Source: Kitasatospora herbaricolor
GTDB lineage: Bacteria; Actinomycetota; Actinomycetes; Streptomycetales; Streptomycetaceae
Direction: 5' to 3'
NCBI RefSeq assembly: GCF_030813695.1
Contig: NZ_JAUSVA010000002.1
Coordinates: 8,207,501 to 8,271,500 of the forward strand
DNA: 64,000 nucleotides
A program made the position numbers and the translations under genes. A model generated the notes under the pieces. It made no database searches. It had not been told where the DNA came from and was given only the letters and a program-made list of their open reading frames with translations. This document shows positions 2,651 through 61,465 of this stretch, piece after piece; position 1 is the first letter of the stretch, and each line of letters opens with the position of its first letter.

Positions 2651-5600
2651 CCCGGCGGCCGGCCCCGCCCTGACCCACCCGCTGACCGCCGAACAGCGCC
2701 GGCTCTGGTTCCTCCTGCAACTGGACCCGGACGACGCCGGCTTCAACATGTACCTGGCGCACCGCTGGAGCGGGCCGCTGGACCAGGGCGCCCTGCGCGC
2801 CGCACTGGCCCGGCTGACCGCCCGGCACGACATCCTGCGCACCCGGTTCGAACTGCGCGGCGAGGAGCCCGTCCAGGTGGTCGGCCCGCCCGCCGCCGTG
2901 GACCTCGCCGTCCGCGAACTGCCCACCGAGGCCGGGGAGTCCGCCGAGGACCTGGAGCGCCGCTTCACCGAGGCCGCCGCCCCGTACGTCAACACGCCCT
3001 TCGACCTGGCCGCCGCCCCGCCGCTGCGCGCCCTGCTGTTCACCGCCAAGGGCGGCGGTGAGCACGCCGTGGTCGTCGTCCTGCACCACATCGTCTCGGA
3101 CGGCTGGTCGGCCGGCACGATGTGGCGCGAGCTGCTCGCCCTCTACCGCGAGGAGATCGGCGAGGCGCCCGCGGATCTGCCCGAACTCGCCCTCCAGTAC
3201 GGTGACTTCGCGCGGGCCGAACAGGCCAGGACGGCCGCCGCGGACCCCGACGAGGCCTACCGCTACTGGTACGGGCGGCTGCAGGGCATCTCTGCGCTGA
3301 CCCTGCCCACCGACCGCCCCCGGCCCGCCGGCGGGACCCACCCCGCCGCCTTCCACGACGTCGAACTCGGGCCGGAACTCACCGCCGGCCTGGACCGGCT
3401 CGCCCGCGAACAGCGCTGCACCCCGTTCATGGTGCTGCTCGCAGTCCACCAGAGCGTGCTGGCCCGCTGGACCGGCCAGGAGGACTTCGCCGTCGGCACC
3501 CCGCTGGCCGGCCGCAACGAGGTCGCCCACGAGGCCCTGCTCGGGTACTTCAGCCGTACCGCCGTCGTCCGGGCCGACCTCACCGGCGAGCCGGACTTCC
3601 GGACCGTGCTGCGCCGGGTCCGCTCCGCCACCATGGCGGCGCTCAGCCACCAGGACATCCCCGAGGAGCGGCTGGCCACCGAGCTCGAACTGCCCAGCCT
3701 GCCGGGCCACTCGGCGCTCTACCAGACCATGTTCGTGCACCAGAGCCAGCACGACCTGACCGCCGCCGGCGCCGGCCCCGGGCCCGCGGGCGTCCGGCTG
3801 GCCCCGATGAACTCCGGCTTCGCCCGCGCCAAGACCGAACTCCTGCTGGACAGCTGGCGCACCGAGGGCGGCGGCCTGACCCTCTCCTTCTGCTACGACC
3901 TGGACGTCTTCGAGCACTCCACCGTCCAGGCCCTGGCCGGCCGCTTCACCTCGCTGCTGGGCAGGGTCGTCGAGGACCCGGAACTCCCGCTGCACGGCGA
4001 CTGGTTCCTCGACCCGGACGAGCGGGCGGCGCTGCTCGCCCAGGGCACCGGCCCCGCCGCGGGCCCCGCCCGCCCGATCCTGGAACGCTTCGCCGCCCAG
4101 GTCGCCGCCCGGCCCGGCGCACCCGCCCTGGAGTACGACGGCGAAACCCTCGACTACGCCGAACTCGACCGCCGCTCCACCCTGCTGGCCCAGCGGCTCG
4201 GCGACCGGCGGGGACACGCCGTCGCCGTCCGGATCGAACCCTCCTTCGCCCTGGTGACCGCCCTGCTGGCGATCTGGAAGGCCGGCGCGGGCTACCTCCC
4301 GCTCGACCCGGCGCACCCCGAGGAGCGCCAGCGGCTGATGACCCGGGAGGCGGACGCGAGCCTGCTGCTCACCGGCGGCGACACCCCCGACCTCGGCCTG
4401 CCCGTCCTCGTCGTCCCGACCGAGTGGCCGGCCGGGGAAGCAGCGCCCGAGGCCCTCCCCGGCACCGCCCCGGACGGCGTCGCGTACATCCTCTACACCT
4501 CCGGCTCCACCGGCACCCCCAAGGGCGTGGTGGTCGAGCACGGCGCGCTCGCCGAGCGCGTCGACTGGATGGCCGGCGACGGCTACCACCTGCAACCCTC
4601 CGACCGGGTCGTCCAGTTCGCCTCCATCGGCTTCGACACCCACGCCGAGGAGATCTGGCCCGCCCTGACCGCCGGCGCCTGCTGCGTCCTGCTGCCGGGC
4701 GGCGGCCGGATGCTCCCCGACCTGCTGCGCTCGCCGCACGGCAGCACGGTCACCGTGCTGGACCTGCCCACCGCCTACTGGCACGAACTGGTCTCGCTGG
4801 GTGAGCAGACGCCGTGGCCGGCCGCGCTGCGGCTGGTCATCCTCGGCGGCTCGGAGGCCTCCGCGCAGGCCGTCGCCCGCTGGCGCGAGCGGCACGGCGA
4901 CCGGGTGCGCCTGGTCAACACCTACGGCCCCACCGAGGCCACCGTCATCGTCACCAGCGCCGACCTGGGCGCCGCCGACACCGCCGGCCGCCCGCCGCTG
5001 GGCCGCCCGCTGCCCGGCGTGCGCTGCTACGTCCTGGACCGGCGCGGGCAACTGCTGGCGCCCGGCTCGGAGGGTGAACTCCACCTCGGCGGCAGCGGGT
5101 TGGCCCGCGGCTACCTGGCCCGCCCCGAGCTGACCGCCGAGCACTTCCGGCCCGACCCGTTCGCCGGCCCCGGCGCCCGGATGTACCGCACCGGCGACCG
5201 GGCCCGCTGGCGCACCGACGGCCGGCTGGACTACCTCGGCCGGGCCGACGACCAGGTGAAGATCCGCGGTTACCGGATCGAGCCCGCCGAGATCGAGAAC
5301 GCCCTCACCACCCACCCGGCGGTGGCCCGCGCGGTGGTCGTGGTCCGCGACGGGCGCCGGCTGATCGGCTACGCCGTGCCCCGGCAGGGCGCCGAACCCG
5401 CGACCGCCGCGCTGCGCGAGCACCTGGCCGCCCGGCTGCCCGCCTTCATGGTCCCGGACGCGCTGGTCCTGGTGGACGCGCTGCCGCTGACCGCCAACGG
5501 CAAGCCCGACCTGGCCGCCCTGCCGGAGCCGGACCCGGCCGGCGGGCTCGGCGGCGAGTACCTGGCACCGCGGACCGACGCCGAGGTGCTGGTCGTGGAG

Positions 5601-8996: not shown

Positions 8997-9039
8997 GGCG
9001 TCATCCTGGCAGTCCCGCGCCCGCCGTGTCCGGCACACG

Positions 9040-28508: not shown

Positions 28509-29276
28509 ATGGTGGAGATCAAGACCGACAGGGCGCTGGAGGCGATGCGGGAAGCCGGACGCGTCGTGGCCCGCGCACTCGCGACCGTCCGGGCCGCGGC
28601 CGCCGTGGGCGTCAGCCTCCGCGAGCTGGACGAGGCCGCCCGCACCGTGCTGGACGAGGCCGGGGCGCGCTCCCCGTTCCTCGGCTACCAGCCCTCCTTC
28701 GCCCCCGTGCCCTTCCCCGCGGTGATCTGCGCCTCCGTCAACGACGCGGTCGTGCACGGCATCCCCGGCGACTACCGCCTGCGCGACGGGGACCTCGTCA
28801 GCATCGACTGCGGCGCCCGGCTCGACGGCTGGACGGGCGACGCCGCGATCAGCTTCACCGTGGGCACCCCGCGCCCCGCCGACCTGGCGCTCATCGCCGC
28901 CACCCAGGAGGCCTTGGACGCCGGCATCGCCGCCGCGACCGTCGGCCGTCGAATCGGCGACATCTCCCACGCCGTCGGCGCGGTCGCCCGCAAGGCGGAC
29001 TGCGGCCTGCTCGACGGCTTCGGCGGCCACGGCATCGGCCGCACGATGCACGAGGACCCGCACGTCCCCAACCGCGGCCGGCCCGGCCGCGGCTATCCGC
29101 TGCGCCACGGGCTCGCCCTCGCGATCGAACCCATGCTGACGGCCGGCGGGCGCGACGACTACCGCACCGATCCCGACGGCTGGACCCTGCGGACGGTCGA
29201 CGGCAGCCGGGCCGCCCACATCGAGCACACCGTCGCCATCACCGAGGAGGGTCCCCGCATCCTGACCCTGCTCTGA
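28509..29276 (+). CDS. map: Methionine aminopeptidase, type I
   Basis: This 255-residue enzyme removes the initiator methionine from nascent proteins. All five metal ligands are visible: Asp in SIDCGARLDGW and WTGDAA, His in GGHGIGRTMHEDP, Glu in LAIEPML and Glu in AHIEHTVAI. There is no N-terminal zinc-finger extension. Streptomycetes often carry more than one map gene. This copy is paired with its own XRE regulator rather than lying in the ribosomal/secY operon, so it is probably a conditional paralogue. Confidence 0.95.
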   Translation: MVEIKTDRALEAMREAGRVVARALATVRAAAAVGVSLRELDEAARTVLDEAGARSPFLGYQPSFAPVPFPAVICASVNDAVVHGIPGDYRLRDGDLVSIDCGARLDGWTGDAAISFTVGTPRPADLALIAATQEALDAGIAAATVGRRIGDISHAVGAVARKADCGLLDGFGGHGIGRTMHEDPHVPNRGRPGRGYPLRHGLALAIEPMLTAGGRDDYRTDPDGWTLRTVDGSRAAHIEHTVAITEEGPRILTLL

Positions 29277-29403
29277 CTCCGGGCCCGGTCCCGGTCGTCG
29301 TCCTGGTCCCGCTCCCGCTCCCGTTCCCGCCGCGCGCTGCGGTCGCGGCCGGATCGCCGTTGCGGCTCCCGGTCCTCGGGCAAGGAACGCGTCCACCCGT
29401 TAT

Positions 29404-29426
29404 CTATCAGGAACCCTGCTTGATAG
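29404..29426. promoter_or_regulatory. Operator-like inverted repeat upstream of the MFS remnant
   Basis: CTATCA-N11-TGATAG (with TATCAGGAACCCTG inside) sits in an AT-rich patch. It matches the operator at 60211-60231 upstream of the intact MFS/ROK pair (TATCAGGA...CCCTGATAGA). It is probably a leftover site for the same ROK-type regulator. Confidence 0.6.
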
Positions 29427-29524
29427 ATTCTGTCGCACCACCGAGGGCGCTCGCGAGGTCCACATCGTCGGAGCCACCTCCTGGCCGTCGATGCCCACCT
29501 GCACAGAAGGGGAGGGCCCGGTTC

Positions 29525-29764
29525 ATGGGCGACCAACAGGAGGCCCGCCGGGCCAGGGTGAGATTCAGCCTGGTGTTCGCGATCCACGGGGCCGTCACCG
29601 GCAGCTTCGTCACCCGGATCCCGTGGATCCGGCTCCACCTGCACCTGAACGCCGGCCAGCTCGGCATCGCGCTGCTCGCACCCGCCGTCGGTGCCTTCCT
29701 CGCGATGCCGCCGGCCGGGCGCGCGGCCCACCGGTACGGCCCCCGGGCGGCGGTGCAGTGGTGA
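29525..29764 (+). pseudogene. Truncated MFS transporter remnant (79 residues)
   Basis: The N-terminus closely parallels the intact 408-residue MFS protein at 58900-60126: RARVRFSLVFAIHGAVTGSFVTRIPWI here against RARVSIALVFALHGSVTGTFATRIPWI there. It stops after two helices at VQW, where the intact protein continues with ATGALVTLW. The next gene's 3' end begins 51 bases on, so the rest was deleted. Its start and operator-like site are preserved. Confidence 0.75.
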
Positions 29765-29814
29765 CCTCGCCGTCCGCCGGCTCGGCCCGGTCCGCACCGT
29801 CCGGGCCGAGGGGG

Positions 29815-30378
29815 CTACTGCCCCACCCGGCCGTCCACGCACTCGCGGAGCAGATCGGCGTGCCCGCAGTGACGCGCGTACTCCTCGATCCGGTGGACCA
29901 GCAGCCCCCGGACGGAGTCGCCGTGGCGCCCCACCCGCACGGCCGGATCCGGGTACTCGGCCAGCACCGCGTCGGTGGCGGCCTGTTCGCGGACGAGGTC
30001 GGCGAACGCGCCGTCGACCAGCTCCTGCTCCGCCGCCGCCCCCTCGAAGTCGCCGTCCCGCGCTCCGTACAGCTTGGGCTCCGGGTCACCCGGCGTGATC
30101 CAGTTGCGCCAGTCCCGCTCCACCTCGGCCAGATGACGGACCAGCCCCAGCAGGGACATGGTCGACGGCGGTACCGACCGCCGCGCGAGTTGCTCCGGCG
30201 TCAACCCCTCGCACTTCATCCGCAGGGTCAGCCGATAGCTCGTCAGATAGTCCTGCAGCGTGGCCAACTCGCCGTCCGGACTGGGGCCTTCGTTGTTACG
30301 AGGGTCCTTGTCGGGGTCCGCCCACATGTCGGGGTAGACGCTTGCCTGGCTCCAACGCTCGGGTAGGTCGCTCATCAT
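29815..30378 (-). CDS. DinB-family protein (DUF664-like)
   Basis: The protein has about 187 residues and a DinB four-helix fold. Visible signatures are MKCEGLTPEQLARRSVPPSTMSLLGLVRHLAEVERDWR and the C-terminal IEEYARHCGHADLLRE with metal-ligand His. Starts at 30384, 30378 and 30375 are all possible; I chose 30378. Family members are thiol- or metal-dependent enzymes such as mycothiol S-transferases, but no specific role can be read here. A paralogue lies at 57485-58009. Confidence 0.88.
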   Translation of the reverse strand: MMSDLPERWSQASVYPDMWADPDKDPRNNEGPSPDGELATLQDYLTSYRLTLRMKCEGLTPEQLARRSVPPSTMSLLGLVRHLAEVERDWRNWITPGDPEPKLYGARDGDFEGAAAEQELVDGAFADLVREQAATDAVLAEYPDPAVRVGRHGDSVRGLLVHRIEEYARHCGHADLLRECVDGRVGQ

Positions 30379-30674
30379 GCGCATGATTCTGAGCGTCGCT
30401 CCGACTGGCAAGTGATTAATCACGTGCGAGGCGCGAGGCCCGAGGCGTCGCCGACGCCCGGACCGTCTTCGACCTGTTCGACCTTGAGCGGCTGGCCGTG
30501 CGGGCTCCCGCGCACGGCTGTGCGGACGGGATCCCGGGCCGACCACTCGTCCCGCAGGACCCGCGCGTCCCGCGCGTGGACGCCTCCTCGGCGGCTGAAC
30601 GGGGGGCGATCGGCCCGCCGGCTCGGAATCCGGCACCGACCAGGGGATCGCCCGCGACGAGGGTGTCGTCCCAT
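30379..30674. other. Intergenic stretch, no convincing gene
   Basis: This roughly 300-base space lies between the DinB start and the sigma-factor stop. The plus strand gives a short plausible segment (RTVFDLFDLERLAVRAP) without a start and with Arg/Pro-rich flanks; it may be a gene remnant. Confidence 0.4.
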
Positions 30675-31922
30675 TCATCCGCCGGCCAGCTGGTCGCGCC
30701 GGCGGACCAGGTACGCCGTCTCGGCGGTGTTGCCCGCCAGGGCGATGGCCCGGTCGTACGCCGCCCTCGCCTCCTCGCTCCGGCCCAGCCGGCGCAGCAG
30801 GTCGGCGCGGGTGGCGTGGAAGGGGTGGTAGCCCTCCAGCGGGAGGCCGTCCAGCTGGGCCAGCGCGACCTGAGGGCCGTCGAGTTCGGCGACGGCGACC
30901 GCCCGGTTGAGCCGGACGATCGGGGAGGGGTCCAGGCGGACCAACCGGTCGTAGAGCGCGAGGACCTGCGACCAGTCGGTGTCACGGACGTCGGGGGCGT
31001 CGGTGTGGACGGCGTTGATCGCGGCGAGCACCTGATAGCGCCCCGGCGCCTGGCCGCAGGCCAGCCGGGCGCGGACCAGGGCGTGGCCCTCGGCGATCAG
31101 CGTGCGGTCCCAGGCGCCGCGGTCCTGCTCGCCGAGGGCGACGAGTTCACCGCTCGCCGAGACCCGAGCTGGCCGGCGGGCCTCGGTCAGGAGCATCAGG
31201 GCCAGGAGTCCGGCGGCCTCGCCGTCCTCCGGCAGCAGGCCGTGGACCAGACGGGCCAGCCGGATCGCCTCGGCGGTCAGGTCGCCACGGACGGCGTGCT
31301 GCGCCGGGTCCGTGGCCAGGTAGCCCTCGTTGAAGATCAGGTAGAGGACGGCGAGGACCCCGGTCACCCGGGCCGGGAGGTCCTCGCGCGACGGTACGCG
31401 GTAGGGGATCCTCGCCGCCTTGATCTTCGCCTTCGCGCGGGTGATCCGTCGGCCCAGGGTGCTCTCCTCGACCAGGAACGCCCGGGCGATCTCGGGCACG
31501 GTCAGCCCGCCGACCATCCGCAGGGTCAGTGCCACCTGCGCCGGCACGGCCAGGGCGGGGTGGCAGCAGACGAGGACGAGGCGGAGCCGGTCGTCCTCGA
31601 CGGCGTCGACCGGCTCGACCGGCTCGACCGCGTCGACCGGCTGGGGGGTGTCGGAGAGCATCAGTGCCTCCTTGTGCTTCTCCGTGCGCCGGGCCTCGCG
31701 CCGGATCCGGTCGATGGCCTTGCGGTGGGCGGTGGTGGTGAGCCACCCGCCGGGGTTCGGCGGGACTCCGTCGACCGGCCAGCGTTCGACGGCGGTGGCG
31801 AACGCCTCGGCGGCCGTCTCCTCGGCGATGTCGAGGTCCCCGTAGCGCCTGGCCAGGGTCGCGACGACCCGGGCCCACTCCTCGTGGTGGACCCGGGTGA
31901 GCACCGCGTCGACGTCGGTCAT
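30675..31922 (-). CDS. ECF sigma factor, ECF42-type with C-terminal helical extension
   Basis: The protein has 415 residues. Sigma region 2 reads WARVVATLARRYGDLDIAEETAAEAFATAVERWP..., and region 4 lies around VALTLRMVGGLTVPEIARAFLVEESTLGRRITRAKAKI. A long C-terminal TPR-like domain follows with YLIFNEGYLAT and RLNRAVAVAELDGP. This architecture with an upstream DGPF gene is typical of the ECF42 group, which lacks a classical anti-sigma factor. Its start overlaps the stop of the YCII/DGPF gene (ATGA), so the two are co-translated. Confidence 0.92.
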   Translation of the reverse strand: MTDVDAVLTRVHHEEWARVVATLARRYGDLDIAEETAAEAFATAVERWPVDGVPPNPGGWLTTTAHRKAIDRIRREARRTEKHKEALMLSDTPQPVDAVEPVEPVDAVEDDRLRLVLVCCHPALAVPAQVALTLRMVGGLTVPEIARAFLVEESTLGRRITRAKAKIKAARIPYRVPSREDLPARVTGVLAVLYLIFNEGYLATDPAQHAVRGDLTAEAIRLARLVHGLLPEDGEAAGLLALMLLTEARRPARVSASGELVALGEQDRGAWDRTLIAEGHALVRARLACGQAPGRYQVLAAINAVHTDAPDVRDTDWSQVLALYDRLVRLDPSPIVRLNRAVAVAELDGPQVALAQLDGLPLEGYHPFHATRADLLRRLGRSEEARAAYDRAIALAGNTAETAYLVRRRDQLAGG

Positions 31923-32251
31923 GCGCCCAGGATCGGCCGGACCTCGACCCTGCGGTTGCAGTGCTTCGACCCCTGGCCGGCGAGCCGGAGCGCCACGTCG
32001 AGGTCGGGGGCCTCCATGATCCAGAAGCCGATGATGTACTCCTTCGACTCCAGGAACGGGCCGTCGGTGAACAGTGCTTCGCCGTCCCGGCCGTCGACGA
32101 CCGTGGCGGTGTCCGGCGAGCTGAGGCCGCCGGCGAAGACCCAGTGGCCCTCGGCCTTGAGCTGCCGGTTGAACGCCCCGATCGCGGCCATCTCCTGCTC
32201 GGTGGCGAGTTGGGACGAGTCGGCGAGAACGGAAACCAGGTACTGCGCCAT
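31919..32251 (-). CDS. YCII/DGPF-domain protein, partner of the ECF sigma factor
   Basis: The protein has 110 residues and a YCII-related fold: MAQYLVSVLADSS, EGHWVFAGGLSSP and the DGPF signature in LFTDGPFLESKEYIIGFWIME. DGPF proteins are the conserved neighbours of ECF42 sigma factors, with an unknown biochemical role. The ATG at 32251 follows GGAG. It is the first gene of a two-gene operon. Confidence 0.9.
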   Translation of the reverse strand: MAQYLVSVLADSSQLATEQEMAAIGAFNRQLKAEGHWVFAGGLSSPDTATVVDGRDGEALFTDGPFLESKEYIIGFWIMEAPDLDVALRLAGQGSKHCNRRVEVRPILGA

Positions 32252-32589
32252 CGGGACCATCTCCTGTCGTCGGGCGACCGCTCCTCGGGCCGCCTTCACC
32301 CCTACTACGAACGCCGCGGCCCCGATCGGACACCTCGGCCGGGATCTCTTCGGGAATGTTCCTACGCCCGGCCCGTGCTCGTTCGCCGGACGCGCCGCCG
32401 AGGGGCGTTCGCGCCGGTCAGCGCCGGTCAGGAGCCGCCGTCACGCCGGACGCGGCGGTGACAGCCAGCCGGGTCACGGGCCGGGCCCGGGAGTCCGTTA
32501 CCCGGGCCCGGCCGGCCCGAAGCTTCCCGCACCCGCGGTGACGCCGGCTGCTGCCGTTGCCGGTCGGGCCGCCTCGGTTTTGCAAGTGC
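32252..32589. other. Intergenic region with the FAD-oxidoreductase terminator and the sigma operon promoter
   Basis: No gene is seen. A 13-bp perfect stem (GGCCGGGCCCGGG / CCCGGGCCCGGCC) at 32479-32513 ends the FAD gene, which stops at 32590. The remainder upstream of 32251 should hold the promoter of the DGPF/sigma operon. Confidence 0.6.
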
Positions 32590-57484: not shown

Positions 57485-58009
57485 TCATTCCCCCGTGGTG
57501 CCGTCCACAAGCTCCCGGAGCAGATCCGCGTGCCCGTTGTGGCGGGCGTACTCCTCGATCATGTGCACCTGGATCCAGCGCAGGGTGACGTCCGCGCCCC
57601 GGCGCTTGCGCCGTCCGACCGTCTCCAGCGGGAGGCCCTCGGCGGCCCGGCGGGCGAGGGCGATCTGCGTCTGCCAGGTCGCGAAGGCCTCGGCGGTGTC
57701 CGCGGTGTCCACGCCGTTGAAGTCGCCGTCCTCGTCCTCGGCGGACCAGTAGAGCCCCTCGCTGTGCTCCTCGCCGAGCAGGATGCCCTGGTACCAGTGC
57801 CGCTCGACCTCGGCCATGTGACGCACCAGGCCGAGCAGCGAGAGCGTGGACGGCGGGACGGAGCGCAGCCGCAGCTGTTCGTCCGTCAGGCCCTCGCACT
57901 TCACGGCGAGGGTGGCCCGGTGGAAGTCGAGCCAGGAGGCCAGCATGGCGTTCTCGTCGGCGGCGAACGGGGGCTCGATGCGGTCGGTGCCGCTCGTGGT
58001 GGTGGTCAT
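57485..58009 (-). CDS. DinB-family protein (DUF664-like), paralogue of 29815-30378
   Basis: The protein has 174 residues. Signatures are VKCEGLTDEQLRLRSVPPSTLSLLGLVRHMAEVERHWYQ and IEEYARHNGHADLLRELVDG, closely matching the copy at 29.8 kb. Starts at 58009 and 58018 are possible. A metal-dependent or mycothiol-dependent enzyme role is typical of the fold, but nothing specific is visible. Confidence 0.9.
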   Translation of the reverse strand: MTTTTSGTDRIEPPFAADENAMLASWLDFHRATLAVKCEGLTDEQLRLRSVPPSTLSLLGLVRHMAEVERHWYQGILLGEEHSEGLYWSAEDEDGDFNGVDTADTAEAFATWQTQIALARRAAEGLPLETVGRRKRRGADVTLRWIQVHMIEEYARHNGHADLLRELVDGTTGE

Positions 58010-58091
58010 GGCGGCCATCCTGGCGCAGAGCACCGACAGAGGCGACCGAATAGTCGGGCGGCGCGCCCGGTGCTGCCCGGGCGGCGAGGCC

Positions 58092-58817
58092 TCAGACGGC
58101 CTCGGCGCGCGGCCGGCGCCGGGCGGCCCGCCACACCGACGCGAGACTGACCAGCACCATCAGGGCGATCGCGCCCGACGAGACCACGAAGGCCGCCGAG
58201 CCCGGCGTCCGCGCGCTCGCGGCGGCGACCACGTACGCGGCGGTCGACGGGACCACGCCGATCGCGGTGGCGGCCAGGAAGGGCGCGAACCGGACCCCGG
58301 AGAACGCGGCGGCGAAGTTGCCGGCCTGGAACGGCAGCCCCGGGAAGAGCCGCAGCAGCAGCACGCTGCGGAACCCCTGTTCGGTGAACCGGCGGTCGAG
58401 CGCGGTCAGCGTCCGGCCACGCAGCAGCGGGCGCAGTGCGTCCCGGCCGAGCAGCCGGCCGAGCCCGAACGCCGGCGCGGCGCCCAGGGTGGTGCCGAGG
58501 ACCGCGAGCAGCAGCCCCTGCTCGATGCCGAACAGCAGGCCGGCGGCGGCGTTCAGGGCGGGCCGCGGCACGAAGGCCAGCGTGCCCAGCGCGTACACCG
58601 CGAGGAAGGCCGGTGCCTGCCAGGTCCCCGGCACGGTCGAGGTCAGGCCGCCGGACAGCAGGGCGGCCGGGTCCCAGAGGAGGAGCGAGCCGGCGGCCGC
58701 GCCGAGGATCACCACCAGCAGGGCGAACCTGGTCCAGGGCGACAGCGCCATGCGGTGCGGCCAGGGCCCGGCCGGTGGGGCGGGCGCGGCCGGCGGGGAG
58801 GGCGGGGGAGCGAGCAC
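58092..58817 (-). CDS. TVP38/TMEM64-family membrane protein
   Basis: The protein has 241 residues from GTG 58817, with an internal ATG giving MALSPWTRF as an alternative. About five or six membrane segments are seen. The VTT-domain motif is LLLRLFPGLPFQAGNFAAAFSGV. Family members are DedA-like lipid-handling membrane proteins. The specific role is unknown. Confidence 0.88.
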   Translation of the reverse strand: MLAPPPSPPAAPAPPAGPWPHRMALSPWTRFALLVVILGAAAGSLLLWDPAALLSGGLTSTVPGTWQAPAFLAVYALGTLAFVPRPALNAAAGLLFGIEQGLLLAVLGTTLGAAPAFGLGRLLGRDALRPLLRGRTLTALDRRFTEQGFRSVLLLRLFPGLPFQAGNFAAAFSGVRFAPFLAATAIGVVPSTAAYVVAAASARTPGSAAFVVSSGAIALMVLVSLASVWRAARRRPRAEAV

Positions 58818-58899: not shown

Positions 58900-60126
58900 T
58901 CAGCGCCGGGCGTTGCTCGGTACGCCTTCGACGGCGTCCAGCGGGGCCCCCGCCGGCGGCTGCGCCGGGTCGGCGGGGGCCGCCGGCCGGCGCAGGGCCC
59001 CGGCGCTGAGGATCAGCGCCGCCGCGAGCAGGGTGACCAGGGCGAAGGACACGCTGAGCGAGGTCGCCTCGGCGAGCACGCCGATCACGGCGGGCGCGAT
59101 CAGGCTGGAGGTGTAGGTCACGGTCGCCACGCCGGCGATCGCCTGGCTGGGGTTCCCGCCGGTCCGCCCGGCCGCGGCGAAGGCCAGCGGCACCACGACC
59201 GCGATGCCGATCCCGATCAGCGCGAAGCCGGGGATGGCCAGCCAGGGCGTGTCGGCGAGGACCACCAGCAGGCCGCCGACGGTGGCGATCGCCCCGCTGA
59301 CCCGGGTCGCGGGCACCGGGCCGAGCCTGCGGATCGCCGCGTCGCCGGCCAGGCGGCTGACCGCCATGGTGAGCGCGAAGGCGGTGTAGGCGGCGGCCGC
59401 GACGGTCGCCGAGGCCCCGGTGACGTCCCGCAGGTAGACGCCGCTCCAGTCCATCGAGGCGCCCTCGGCGAAGACCGCGCAGAACCCGACCAGCCCGATC
59501 GCGAGCGCACTGCGCGGCGGCAGGGCGAAGTGCGGCGGCGCCTCCTCGCCGGGCTTGGACCGGATGTCCGGCAGTTGCCGGGAGACCAGCTGGGCGAGGA
59601 CGGCCAGCACGCCGGCGGTGATCGCGAGCTGGAGCCTGGCGTCCAGGTTCTGGTGGGCGGCCAGCACACCCACGGCGGAGGCGAGCAAGGTGCCCACGCT
59701 CCACATGCCGTGCAGGCCGGACATGATCGAGCGGCCGAGCCGCTCCTCGATCTCGACGCCCTGGGCGTTCATCGCCACGTCCGCCATGCCGGCGGTGGCG
59801 CCGTAGACCAGCAGCGACAGGCAGAGGAAGGGCAGCGAGGGGGCAAGGGCGGGCAGGGCCAGCGACAGGCACCACAGGGTGACCAGCGCGCCGGTGGCGG
59901 CCCGGCCGCCGAACCGGTGGACGATCCGCCCGGCCAGCGGCATGGCCAGCGAGGACCCGATCGCCGGCATCACCAGGGCGAGGCCGAGCTGGCCCGGGCC
60001 CAGGTCGAGGTGGTGCTGGATCCACGGGATCCGGGTGGCGAAGGTACCGGTGACCGAGCCGTGCAGGGCGAACACCAGGGCGATGCTCACCCGGGCCCGG
60101 CGTGGGTCCTTCAGTATCTCGGGCAT
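58900..60126 (-). CDS. MFS transporter, divergent from a ROK regulator
   Basis: The protein has 408 residues and about 12 membrane helices, beginning RARVSIALVFALHGSVTGTFATRIPWIQHHL. The sequence resembles the YbjJ-type group of sugar or drug MFS proteins. It is divergent from a ROK regulator with a shared operator, which suggests control by a sugar-like ligand. A truncated paralogue lies at 29525-29764. Confidence 0.9.
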   Translation of the reverse strand: MPEILKDPRRARVSIALVFALHGSVTGTFATRIPWIQHHLDLGPGQLGLALVMPAIGSSLAMPLAGRIVHRFGGRAATGALVTLWCLSLALPALAPSLPFLCLSLLVYGATAGMADVAMNAQGVEIEERLGRSIMSGLHGMWSVGTLLASAVGVLAAHQNLDARLQLAITAGVLAVLAQLVSRQLPDIRSKPGEEAPPHFALPPRSALAIGLVGFCAVFAEGASMDWSGVYLRDVTGASATVAAAAYTAFALTMAVSRLAGDAAIRRLGPVPATRVSGAIATVGGLLVVLADTPWLAIPGFALIGIGIAVVVPLAFAAAGRTGGNPSQAIAGVATVTYTSSLIAPAVIGVLAEATSLSVSFALVTLLAAALILSAGALRRPAAPADPAQPPAGAPLDAVEGVPSNARR

Positions 60127-60210
60127 TCCACGTTCCCTCCGAGTCGCGGGGCAGTCGCGACGGTGCCGTCCATGGTCGGGGAACCCGGATGGGCGCCCGG
60201 TCCGATAAAT

Positions 60211-60231
60211 TATCAGGAAGGGACCCTGATA
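60211..60231. promoter_or_regulatory. ROK-type operator between the MFS and ROK genes
   Basis: TATCAGG-N7-CCTGATA lies in an AT-rich patch between the divergent starts at 60126 and 60272. The same pattern precedes the MFS remnant at 29404. Confidence 0.75.
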
Positions 60232-60271
60232 GAAACAGTTGTGGCGACGCAGTCTGGAAGGATGCAACCTC

Positions 60272-61465
60272 ATGAGCACCGTTCGAACGGCGACACCGAG
60301 CACCGCCCGGGCCATCAACGACCGGCTGGCACTCAACCTGCTGCTCGAACAGGGCCCGCTCACGGCGACCGAGTTGCGCGAACTCACCGGCCTCTCCCGG
60401 CCCACCGTCTCCGACCTGCTGGACCGGCTGCAACGCGGCGGCCTGGTCGCGCTGGCCGGCGAGCGCGGGGAGGCGCGCCGCGGCCCGAACGCCCGGCTCT
60501 ACGCGCTGGTCACCTCCCGCGCCCACATCGCGGCCATCGACGTCCGCTCCGTCGGCGTCAGCATCGTCATCGCCGACCTGGCCGGCCACACCCTGGCCAC
60601 CGCCGAGATCCCGGCCGGCCCCGAGGCCGGCCACGGCGCCGAAGGACTCGCCGGACGGACCGTGAGCACCCTGCTCGACACCGCCCGCCGGGCCGGCGTC
60701 GAGCAGCTGCACACGGTGGCCGTCGGCATCCCGGGCCTGGTCGACCCCGCCACCGGGCGGCTCGACAACACCGGCGGCCTGCCGGGCTGGCACACCGAGC
60801 TGATCGCCGCACTGCGCGAACTGCCAGGCACCGGGCTGATCCTGGAGAACGAGGTCAACCTGGCCTGCATCACCGAGCACCGCACGGGCGCCGCCCGCGA
60901 CCGCGACACCTTCGTCCTGCTCTGGCTCGGCCACGGCACCGGCGCCGGCGTCATGCTGGACGGCGGGCTGCGGCGCGGCGCCTCCGGCGGCACCGGCGAG
61001 ATCGGCTTCCTGCCCGTCCCCGGGACGGACCGGCTGCCCAACGCCTCCGACTGCGACGGCGGCTTCCACGCCCTGGTCGGCAGCAGCGCCGTCTGCGCGC
61101 TGGCCCGCGCCCTCGGACTGCCCGCCGACGCCGCCGGCGACGCGGCCGCCGCCGAGGCGGTGGTCCACGCCGCCGTCGCGGCGGGGCCCGCCGGTGCGCC
61201 CTTCCTGGACGCGTTCGCCGGCCGGGTGGCCGTCGGCGCCGCCGCGATCTGCGTGGTGCTCGACCCCGGCTGCGTGGTGCTCGGTGGGGAGGTCGGCCGG
61301 GCCGGCGGCGCCGAACTGGCCGGCCGGGTCGCCCGGAAGCTGGCCGAACTCTCACCGCTGCGCACCGAGGTACGGGTCGGGGCGGTCGGCGGCGGCGGGG
61401 TGCTCGGCGGCGCCGTCCTCCTCGCCTGCGACGCCGCCCGCCGGGACCTCTTCGGCGGGCCCTGA
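60272..61465 (+). CDS. ROK-family transcriptional regulator
   Basis: The protein has 397 residues. The N-terminal winged helix is LALNLLLEQGPLTATELRELTGLSRPTVSDLLDRLQRGGLV. The ROK sugar-kinase-like domain has VGIPGLVDPATGRLDNTGGLPGW, ENEVNLACITE and LWLGHGTGAGVMLDG. The zinc-binding Cys cluster of ROK proteins is largely missing: only one Cys appears in NASDCDGGFHALV. It probably represses the divergent MFS gene until a sugar binds. Confidence 0.93.
   Translation: MSTVRTATPSTARAINDRLALNLLLEQGPLTATELRELTGLSRPTVSDLLDRLQRGGLVALAGERGEARRGPNARLYALVTSRAHIAAIDVRSVGVSIVIADLAGHTLATAEIPAGPEAGHGAEGLAGRTVSTLLDTARRAGVEQLHTVAVGIPGLVDPATGRLDNTGGLPGWHTELIAALRELPGTGLILENEVNLACITEHRTGAARDRDTFVLLWLGHGTGAGVMLDGGLRRGASGGTGEIGFLPVPGTDRLPNASDCDGGFHALVGSSAVCALARALGLPADAAGDAAAAEAVVHAAVAAGPAGAPFLDAFAGRVAVGAAAICVVLDPGCVVLGGEVGRAGGAELAGRVARKLAELSPLRTEVRVGAVGGGGVLGGAVLLACDAARRDLFGGP

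What the first reader, a model, noticed from the sequence alone, without database searches (positions are those of the whole stretch)
29400..30378. Decayed copy of the MFS locus with its operator and a DinB neighbour
The 79-residue MFS remnant, its TATCAGG...TGATAG operator and a DinB gene together mirror the locus at 57.5-60.3 kb, where DinB, an intact MFS and a ROK operator lie close together. This looks like an old segmental duplication followed by loss.
Basis: seen in the sequence. Interest (0 to 1): 0.5.

Follow-up and report, generated by a model that had tools for sequence, protein, structure and literature searches.

The report
Dead transporter gene, not a duplication
A soil actinomycete carries the wreck of a second transporter gene, gutted by two deletions but still with its likely regulator-binding site; a close relative has the gene intact in the same place, so this is ordinary gene loss and not a copied chromosome segment.

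Summary
At 29525-29764 (+) lies a 79-codon MFS remnant, preceded by a 23-bp palindrome (29404-29426) and followed by a DinB/MST gene (29815-30378, -). With up to 3 mismatches the palindrome pattern occurs twice in the genome: here and between MFS and ROK at 60210-60232. A same-genus genome, G016, has an intact 452-aa MFS in this slot, between the same aminopeptidase and the same DinB gene. Relative to it the window lacks net 614 and 612 bases; a second scrap of the gene survives between the two gaps. dN/dS of the remnant is 0.94 (14 changes) against 0.07-0.19 in three comparison genes: a pseudogene.

A segmental duplication of 57.5-60.3 kb is not supported. DNA similarity is confined to MFS, operator and DinB family resemblance in another relative orientation; no VTT or ROK gene accompanies the remnant. 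A tree joining remnant, G016 copy and resident MFS is rejected (p-AU 4e-12). Best reading: a second, acquired or ancient, MFS with its own operator, probably repressed in trans by the resident ROK (binding not shown), later gutted in place. Ordinary; low interest.

The parts
29404..29426 (+). 23-bp palindrome (orphan operator) upstream of the MFS remnant
   Evidence: One of two sites in the genome at up to 3 mismatches; same element before the intact G016 gene, differing by one base that makes the G016 site symmetric. Operator function inferred
29525..29764 (+). MFS pseudogene, first fragment: 77 codons collinear with the intact gene, then two codons and TGA created at the deletion joint
   Evidence: 87% identical to the intact G016 MFS over 78 residues
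29756..29806 (+). MFS pseudogene, second fragment, from the second half of the gene; flanked by net deletions of 614 nt (left) and 612 nt (right). Right end approximate
   Evidence: 43 identical bases at 29760-29802 to L068 4804-4846; sizes worked out from the anchors printed
29815..30378 (-). DinB-superfamily mycothiol-S-transferase gene (DinB A), apparently intact neighbour
   Evidence: PF04978 E 3.2e-37; dN/dS 0.07 against G016
28509..29276 (+). Type I methionine aminopeptidase, left neighbour shared with G016 and G051
   Evidence: TIGR00500 above cut-off
58900..60126 (-). Resident intact MFS transporter (MFS B), 408 aa
   Evidence: PF07690 E 1.8e-26
60210..60232 (-). Palindrome between MFS B and ROK
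   Evidence: same element before the MFS in 33 of 33 related loci scanned
60272..61465 (+). ROK-family regulator with winged-helix domain, divergent from MFS B; the likely binder of both palindromes (inferred)
   Evidence: PF00480 E 4.8e-27 and HTH models

Best explanation
A pseudogene made in place. An ancestor shared with G016 carried a second, complete MFS gene with its own operator but no ROK gene beside it, between a methionine aminopeptidase and a mycothiol-S-transferase gene (shown by G016). This copy is not a lineage-specific duplicate of the resident MFS; its nearest kin are MFS genes of other genus members, so it was acquired, or is an ancient paralogue (inferred). While alive it was probably repressed in trans by the resident ROK protein through its operator (inferred, binding not shown). 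In the window's lineage two deletions removed net 614 and 612 bases, leaving operator, 77 codons and a scrap of about 16 codons, and the remains drift without purifying selection (shown by alignment and dN/dS). The DinB neighbour is coincidental.
For: Intact 452-aa MFS in the same slot and orientation in G016. Two collinear fragments in the window with 43 identical bases in the second. dN/dS 0.94 for the remnant against 0.13 MetAP, 0.07 DinB A, 0.19 MFS B; first 77 codons of MFS B have 0 replacement and 10 silent changes (Fisher p 0.0006, 0.005 and 0.014 against MFS B first 77, MetAP and MFS B full). Remnant groups with G016 A (100/98), then the second MFS of G027 (100/97), then G013 and G034 (100/96), apart from the resident copies. 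Operator and MFS go together: 33 of 33 loci, 76 of 79 named relatives at 0-1 mismatch.
Against: Only 14 changes underlie the dN/dS. Silent divergence of the remnant (0.066) is lower than in MetAP and DinB A (0.184), which I do not fully explain. The intact gene is known in this slot in one genome only (G016, of 70 searched). Transfer against ancient duplication is not resolved, and ROK binding is untested.
Confidence: 0.87

Rival explanations
1. Old segmental duplication of the 57.5-60.3 kb locus (DinB, MFS, operator), followed by loss: the first reader's reading.
For: MFS 64%, same type of operator, only two in the genome, a PF04978 gene at both places. DinB A and B as sister groups are not rejected (p-AU 0.28).
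Against: No VTT or ROK similarity at 29 kb; MFS-DinB orientation differs; DinB A as close to a third copy; p-AU 3.8e-12 against one clade of remnant, G016 A and resident MFS copies (the set of rows was widened after a first tree had been seen).
Confidence: 0.03
2. Ancient duplication of the MFS gene with its operator alone, before several genus members diverged, with later loss in most of them, instead of transfer.
For: In the unrooted tree the group of the remnant lies next to the group of the resident copies on a very short, weakly supported branch (77/80, 0.004). G027 also carries two MFS copies.
Against: G013 and G034, nearest to the remnant's group, have one strong match each, with ROK beside it, so many separate losses would be needed; the solo copies of G016 and G027 sit in different neighbourhoods.
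Confidence: 0.25
3. The remnant still works: the 79-codon frame makes a small membrane protein, or the palindrome acts as a decoy for the ROK repressor.
For: Start codon and an AGAAGGGGAGGG stretch before it are kept; palindrome nearly intact.
Against: dN/dS near 1; a proline where the four kin compared have L or M; one base of the palindrome breaks the symmetry seen in G016. A fairly recent loss would leave the same traces.
Confidence: 0.04

Closest known systems
Bacterial pseudogene made by internal deletions
   Same: Frame-breaking loss, leftover pieces in order, relaxed selection, intact counterpart in a relative
   Different: Nothing material; a kept operator is the only embellishment
ROK-family repressor with divergent transporter and palindromic operator (CsnR of Streptomyces lividans is a documented ROK repressor acting on a palindrome; PMC3048496, passages seen)
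   Same: ROK regulator with winged helix, divergent transporter, palindrome between them
   Different: CsnR controls a chitosanase gene; this palindrome, ligand and transported substrate are uncharacterised here, and the remnant's copy has no ROK gene beside it

Membership tests
Pseudogene by in-place deletion | Intact counterpart at the same place in a relative | tested here: met
   G016 L068 3955-5313 between the same two neighbours; 1 of 70 genomes shows it
Pseudogene by in-place deletion | Remaining pieces collinear with the intact gene | tested here: met
   anchors; net gaps of 614 and 612 nt
Pseudogene by in-place deletion | Loss of purifying selection | tested here: met
   dN/dS 0.94 against 0.07-0.19, from 14 changes only
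Pseudogene by in-place deletion | No function of the product or its operator | not testable with these tools
   Needs expression and deletion data
Segmental duplication of 57.5-60.3 kb | Similarity beyond a single gene, including intergenic DNA | tested here: not met
   (output cut at 9000 characters, strongest first): MFS 214 bp, DinB coding matches on the opposite strand, then short GC-rich matches
Segmental duplication of 57.5-60.3 kb | Same gene order and orientation | tested here: not met
   MFS and DinB convergent against same strand with VTT between
Segmental duplication of 57.5-60.3 kb | The two MFS copies are each other's nearest kin | tested here: not met
   p-AU 3.8e-12
Segmental duplication of 57.5-60.3 kb | The two DinB copies are each other's nearest kin | tested here: inconclusive
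   Not so in the best tree, but holding them together is not rejected, p-AU 0.28; equal scores to a third copy
ROK-controlled MFS locus | Palindrome upstream of the MFS | tested here: met
ROK-controlled MFS locus | Divergent ROK gene next to the MFS | tested here: not met
   None beside the remnant or beside its intact G016 counterpart
ROK-controlled MFS locus | ROK protein binds the palindrome | not testable with these tools
   Inferred from co-occurrence

The most novel reading that the evidence does not exclude
The orphan palindrome, kept after the transporter died and one of only two in the genome, still draws ROK protein and shifts the threshold at which the resident ROK/MFS pair is switched on: a fossil target site acting as a decoy.
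Probability: 0.04. Interest if true: 0.35.

Novelty: new member of a known kind. Interest (0 to 1): 0.12.

Why it matters
By itself little: one more pseudogene, with the lesson that neighbours from an abundant family (eight DinB matches in this genome, the query included) can imitate a duplicated segment. The by-product is more useful: a sharply conserved palindrome that goes with one ROK regulator and one MFS transporter in Kitasatospora and Streptomyces, mostly one site per genome, and cases (G016, G027 and once the window's lineage) in which a second transporter carries the same palindrome without a regulator of its own.

Tried and rejected
Segmental duplication: rejected for this lineage, with the DinB tree inconclusive. 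DinB as a tie between the loci: no specific support. Remnant as a working small protein: disfavoured. Trace of the MFS in G051: one search gave 13 matches at E up to 0.01; two are the flanks, the other eleven are scattered short matches (18-62 bp).

Errors of mine that were redone: the MAFFT alignment of the two loci misplaced the second fragment, so the gaps were located with exact anchors. The first operator scan ignored the strand of minus-strand loci; redone. The first Pfam scan read the ROK gene in a wrong frame (no hit); redone. The first DinB tree (28 rows) held one row read at a wrong offset (G016_C70); replaced with 19 rows (nine remoter rows dropped). The MFS tree was first built with two distant outgroup rows (36 rows) and then without (34 rows).

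Literature: searches (listings seen) and passages of PMC3048496 and PMC10763038 (in the latter ROK appears in the reference list only) gave no description of this palindrome or ROK/MFS pair. The library is open access only, so this does not show that it is unpublished. The nearest solved ROK chains are weakly similar (best E 3.9e-14, Lmo0178).

Full report
What is there. The window lies in a 9.58-Mb actinomycete genome. At 28509-29276 (+) is a type I methionine aminopeptidase. A palindrome follows at 29404-29426, then a 79-codon frame at 29525-29764 (+) that matches the start of MFS_1 (PF07690 positions 2-63 of 347). A DinB-superfamily mycothiol-S-transferase (PF04978) lies at 29815-30378 (-). 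At 57.5-61.5 kb are another PF04978 gene (57485-58033, -), a VTT-domain gene (58092-58817, -), an intact MFS (58900-60126, -), a palindrome (60210-60232) and a ROK regulator (60272-61465, +).

More than chance. Remnant and intact MFS are 64% identical over 72 residues and 76% over 214 bp of DNA. Four other near-full-length matches in the genome are 33-36% identical to the intact MFS. The palindrome pattern with up to 3 mismatches occurs twice in the genome, at these two loci; the reversed control pattern once. Among 70 genomes of the genus, the window's included, a 21-bp core with up to 1 mismatch is found in 68; the reversed control gives one hit in all (G043). Most genomes have one site; G000, G016, G027 and G033 have two (those of G033 lie at the ends of two contigs) and G039 six. 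The two without (G045, G057) are also the two with the weakest best match to the remnant, E 4.8e-10 and 1.6e-8.

The intact counterpart. In G016 contig 83 (L068) a 452-aa MFS (3955-5313) stands between the same aminopeptidase and the same DinB gene, in the same orientations, with the palindrome 98 nt before its start. Its first 78 residues are 87% identical to the remnant. G016 is the only one of the 70 genomes in which one search showed this arrangement in its listing. From the anchors I work out two gaps in the window relative to G016: net 614 nt after codon 77, which breaks the frame, and net 612 nt between the second fragment and the 3' flank of DinB. The fragment between them holds 43 bases identical to the second half of the G016 gene.

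Dead, and probably not for long. Over 77 codons the remnant differs from G016 by 10 replacement and 4 silent changes (dN/dS 0.94). The same two genomes give 0.13 for the aminopeptidase, 0.07 for DinB A and 0.19 for the resident MFS; its first 77 codons have 0 replacement and 10 silent changes. Fisher tests give p 0.0006, 0.005 and 0.014 against the first 77 codons of MFS B, MetAP and all of MFS B. Caveats: the changes are few, and silent divergence in the remnant (0.066) is lower than in MetAP and DinB A (0.184). That suits a loss part-way along the branch better than an old one, but is not fully explained. The palindrome differs from that of G016 by one base, which breaks its symmetry.

Not a lineage-specific duplicate of the resident locus. 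(1) DNA similarity is confined to the MFS gene and to DinB coding sequence on the opposite strand, followed by short GC-rich matches (my printout was cut at 9000 characters, strongest first); the palindromes are too short for that search and were compared directly. (2) DinB A and B are 47% identical. DinB A is as close to a copy at 2.28 Mb (116.5 against 114.7 bits), and the genome has eight matches including the query. Orthologues of DinB A (79-80%) lie 7.7 Mb from the MFS gene in G013 and on another contig in G034. Against this, a tree forcing the A and B groups together is not rejected (p-AU 0.28). (3) In a tree of 34 MFS proteins the remnant groups with G016 A (100/98), then with the second copy of G027 (100/97), then with G013 and G034 (100/96); the resident copies of G000, G016 and G051 group with G063, G069 and G047. 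Holding remnant, G016 A and the three resident copies together is rejected (p-AU 3.8e-12). Caveats: the remnant fills 20% of the columns, though G016 A is complete; and the tested set was fixed after an earlier tree. The two groups are neighbours in the unrooted tree on a very short, weak branch (77/80, length 0.004), so a much older duplication is not excluded.

Where it came from. I scanned 33 loci: 29 of the 30 fetched (the window's remnant excluded) and four resident copies. All 33 have the palindrome within 1 mismatch upstream of the MFS, and 30 have a ROK hit there. The three without are G016 A, the second copy of G027, and G033 (contig end). The G027 copy lies elsewhere, between a ROK-type glucokinase-like gene (no DNA-binding part seen) and a gamma-glutamyltranspeptidase-like gene (named by eye from the ORFs). 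Two solo copies at two places, both nearest to ROK-linked single copies of G013 and G034, suggest that MFS plus palindrome moved without its regulator. This is inference. In G051 the slot between aminopeptidase and DinB holds about 9 kb of other genes and no convincing trace of the MFS.

How it would have worked. ROK proteins of this build (winged helix plus PF00480 domain) commonly repress sugar-uptake or sugar-use genes (general knowledge; CsnR of S. lividans is a ROK repressor acting on a palindrome, PMC3048496, passages seen). The simplest model is that the resident ROK represses its own MFS through 60210-60232 and, while the second MFS was alive, that gene through 29404-29426. Binding is not shown. 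The substrate is unknown: NCBIfam gives only hits far below cut-off.

Wider conservation. Of 514 relatives found (capped scan) the best 80 were returned and 79 could be scanned (one too near a contig end). The palindrome is present at 0 or 1 mismatch in 76, at 2 in one, and absent in two (L124, L166); a divergent ROK hit is present in 77 (missing in L124 and in L143, which is cut by a contig end). Four literature searches (listings seen) found no description of this palindrome in the open-access library.

Verdict. Observation confirmed. Interpretation half right: a decayed MFS with its operator, yes; a duplicated segment, no. Ordinary gene loss, new only as an instance.

Noticed in passing
G039:C1:7823716-7823820: G039 has six palindrome sites instead of the usual one, three of them within about 105 bp; possibly an enlarged ROK regulon.
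   Followed up: no
L069 (G051:C1:1240500-1257500): Between DinB and the aminopeptidase G051 carries about 9 kb of genes that by eye resemble galactokinase, an alpha-galactosidase-type enzyme, a sulfotransferase, a glycosyltransferase and an MFS exporter; no family scan was made.
   Followed up: partly
L069 3141-3623: By eye a C-terminal fragment of the sigma-factor-like gene that is full length at window 30675-32333, so G051 also seems to have lost most of that neighbour.
   Followed up: no
window 30379-30674: About 300 nt separate DinB A from the sigma-factor-like gene here, against about 1 kb with two small open frames in G016 (L068 6068-7102): another indel in the same neighbourhood.
   Followed up: no
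L072 2333-4806 (G027): The solo second MFS of G027 ends close to a convergent ROK-type glucokinase-like gene.
   Followed up: no
G013:C1:298564, G034:C26:75011, G027:C1:8253990: A PF04978-like DinB gene lies within about 5-6 kb of the ROK/MFS locus in these genomes too; those of G013 and G034 belong to a different DinB group from the window's DinB B.
   Followed up: partly
G000:C2:4024100-4025299 (L003): Another MFS relative in the same genome is reported with one in-frame TGA inside the match; pseudogene or alignment overrun not checked.
   Followed up: no
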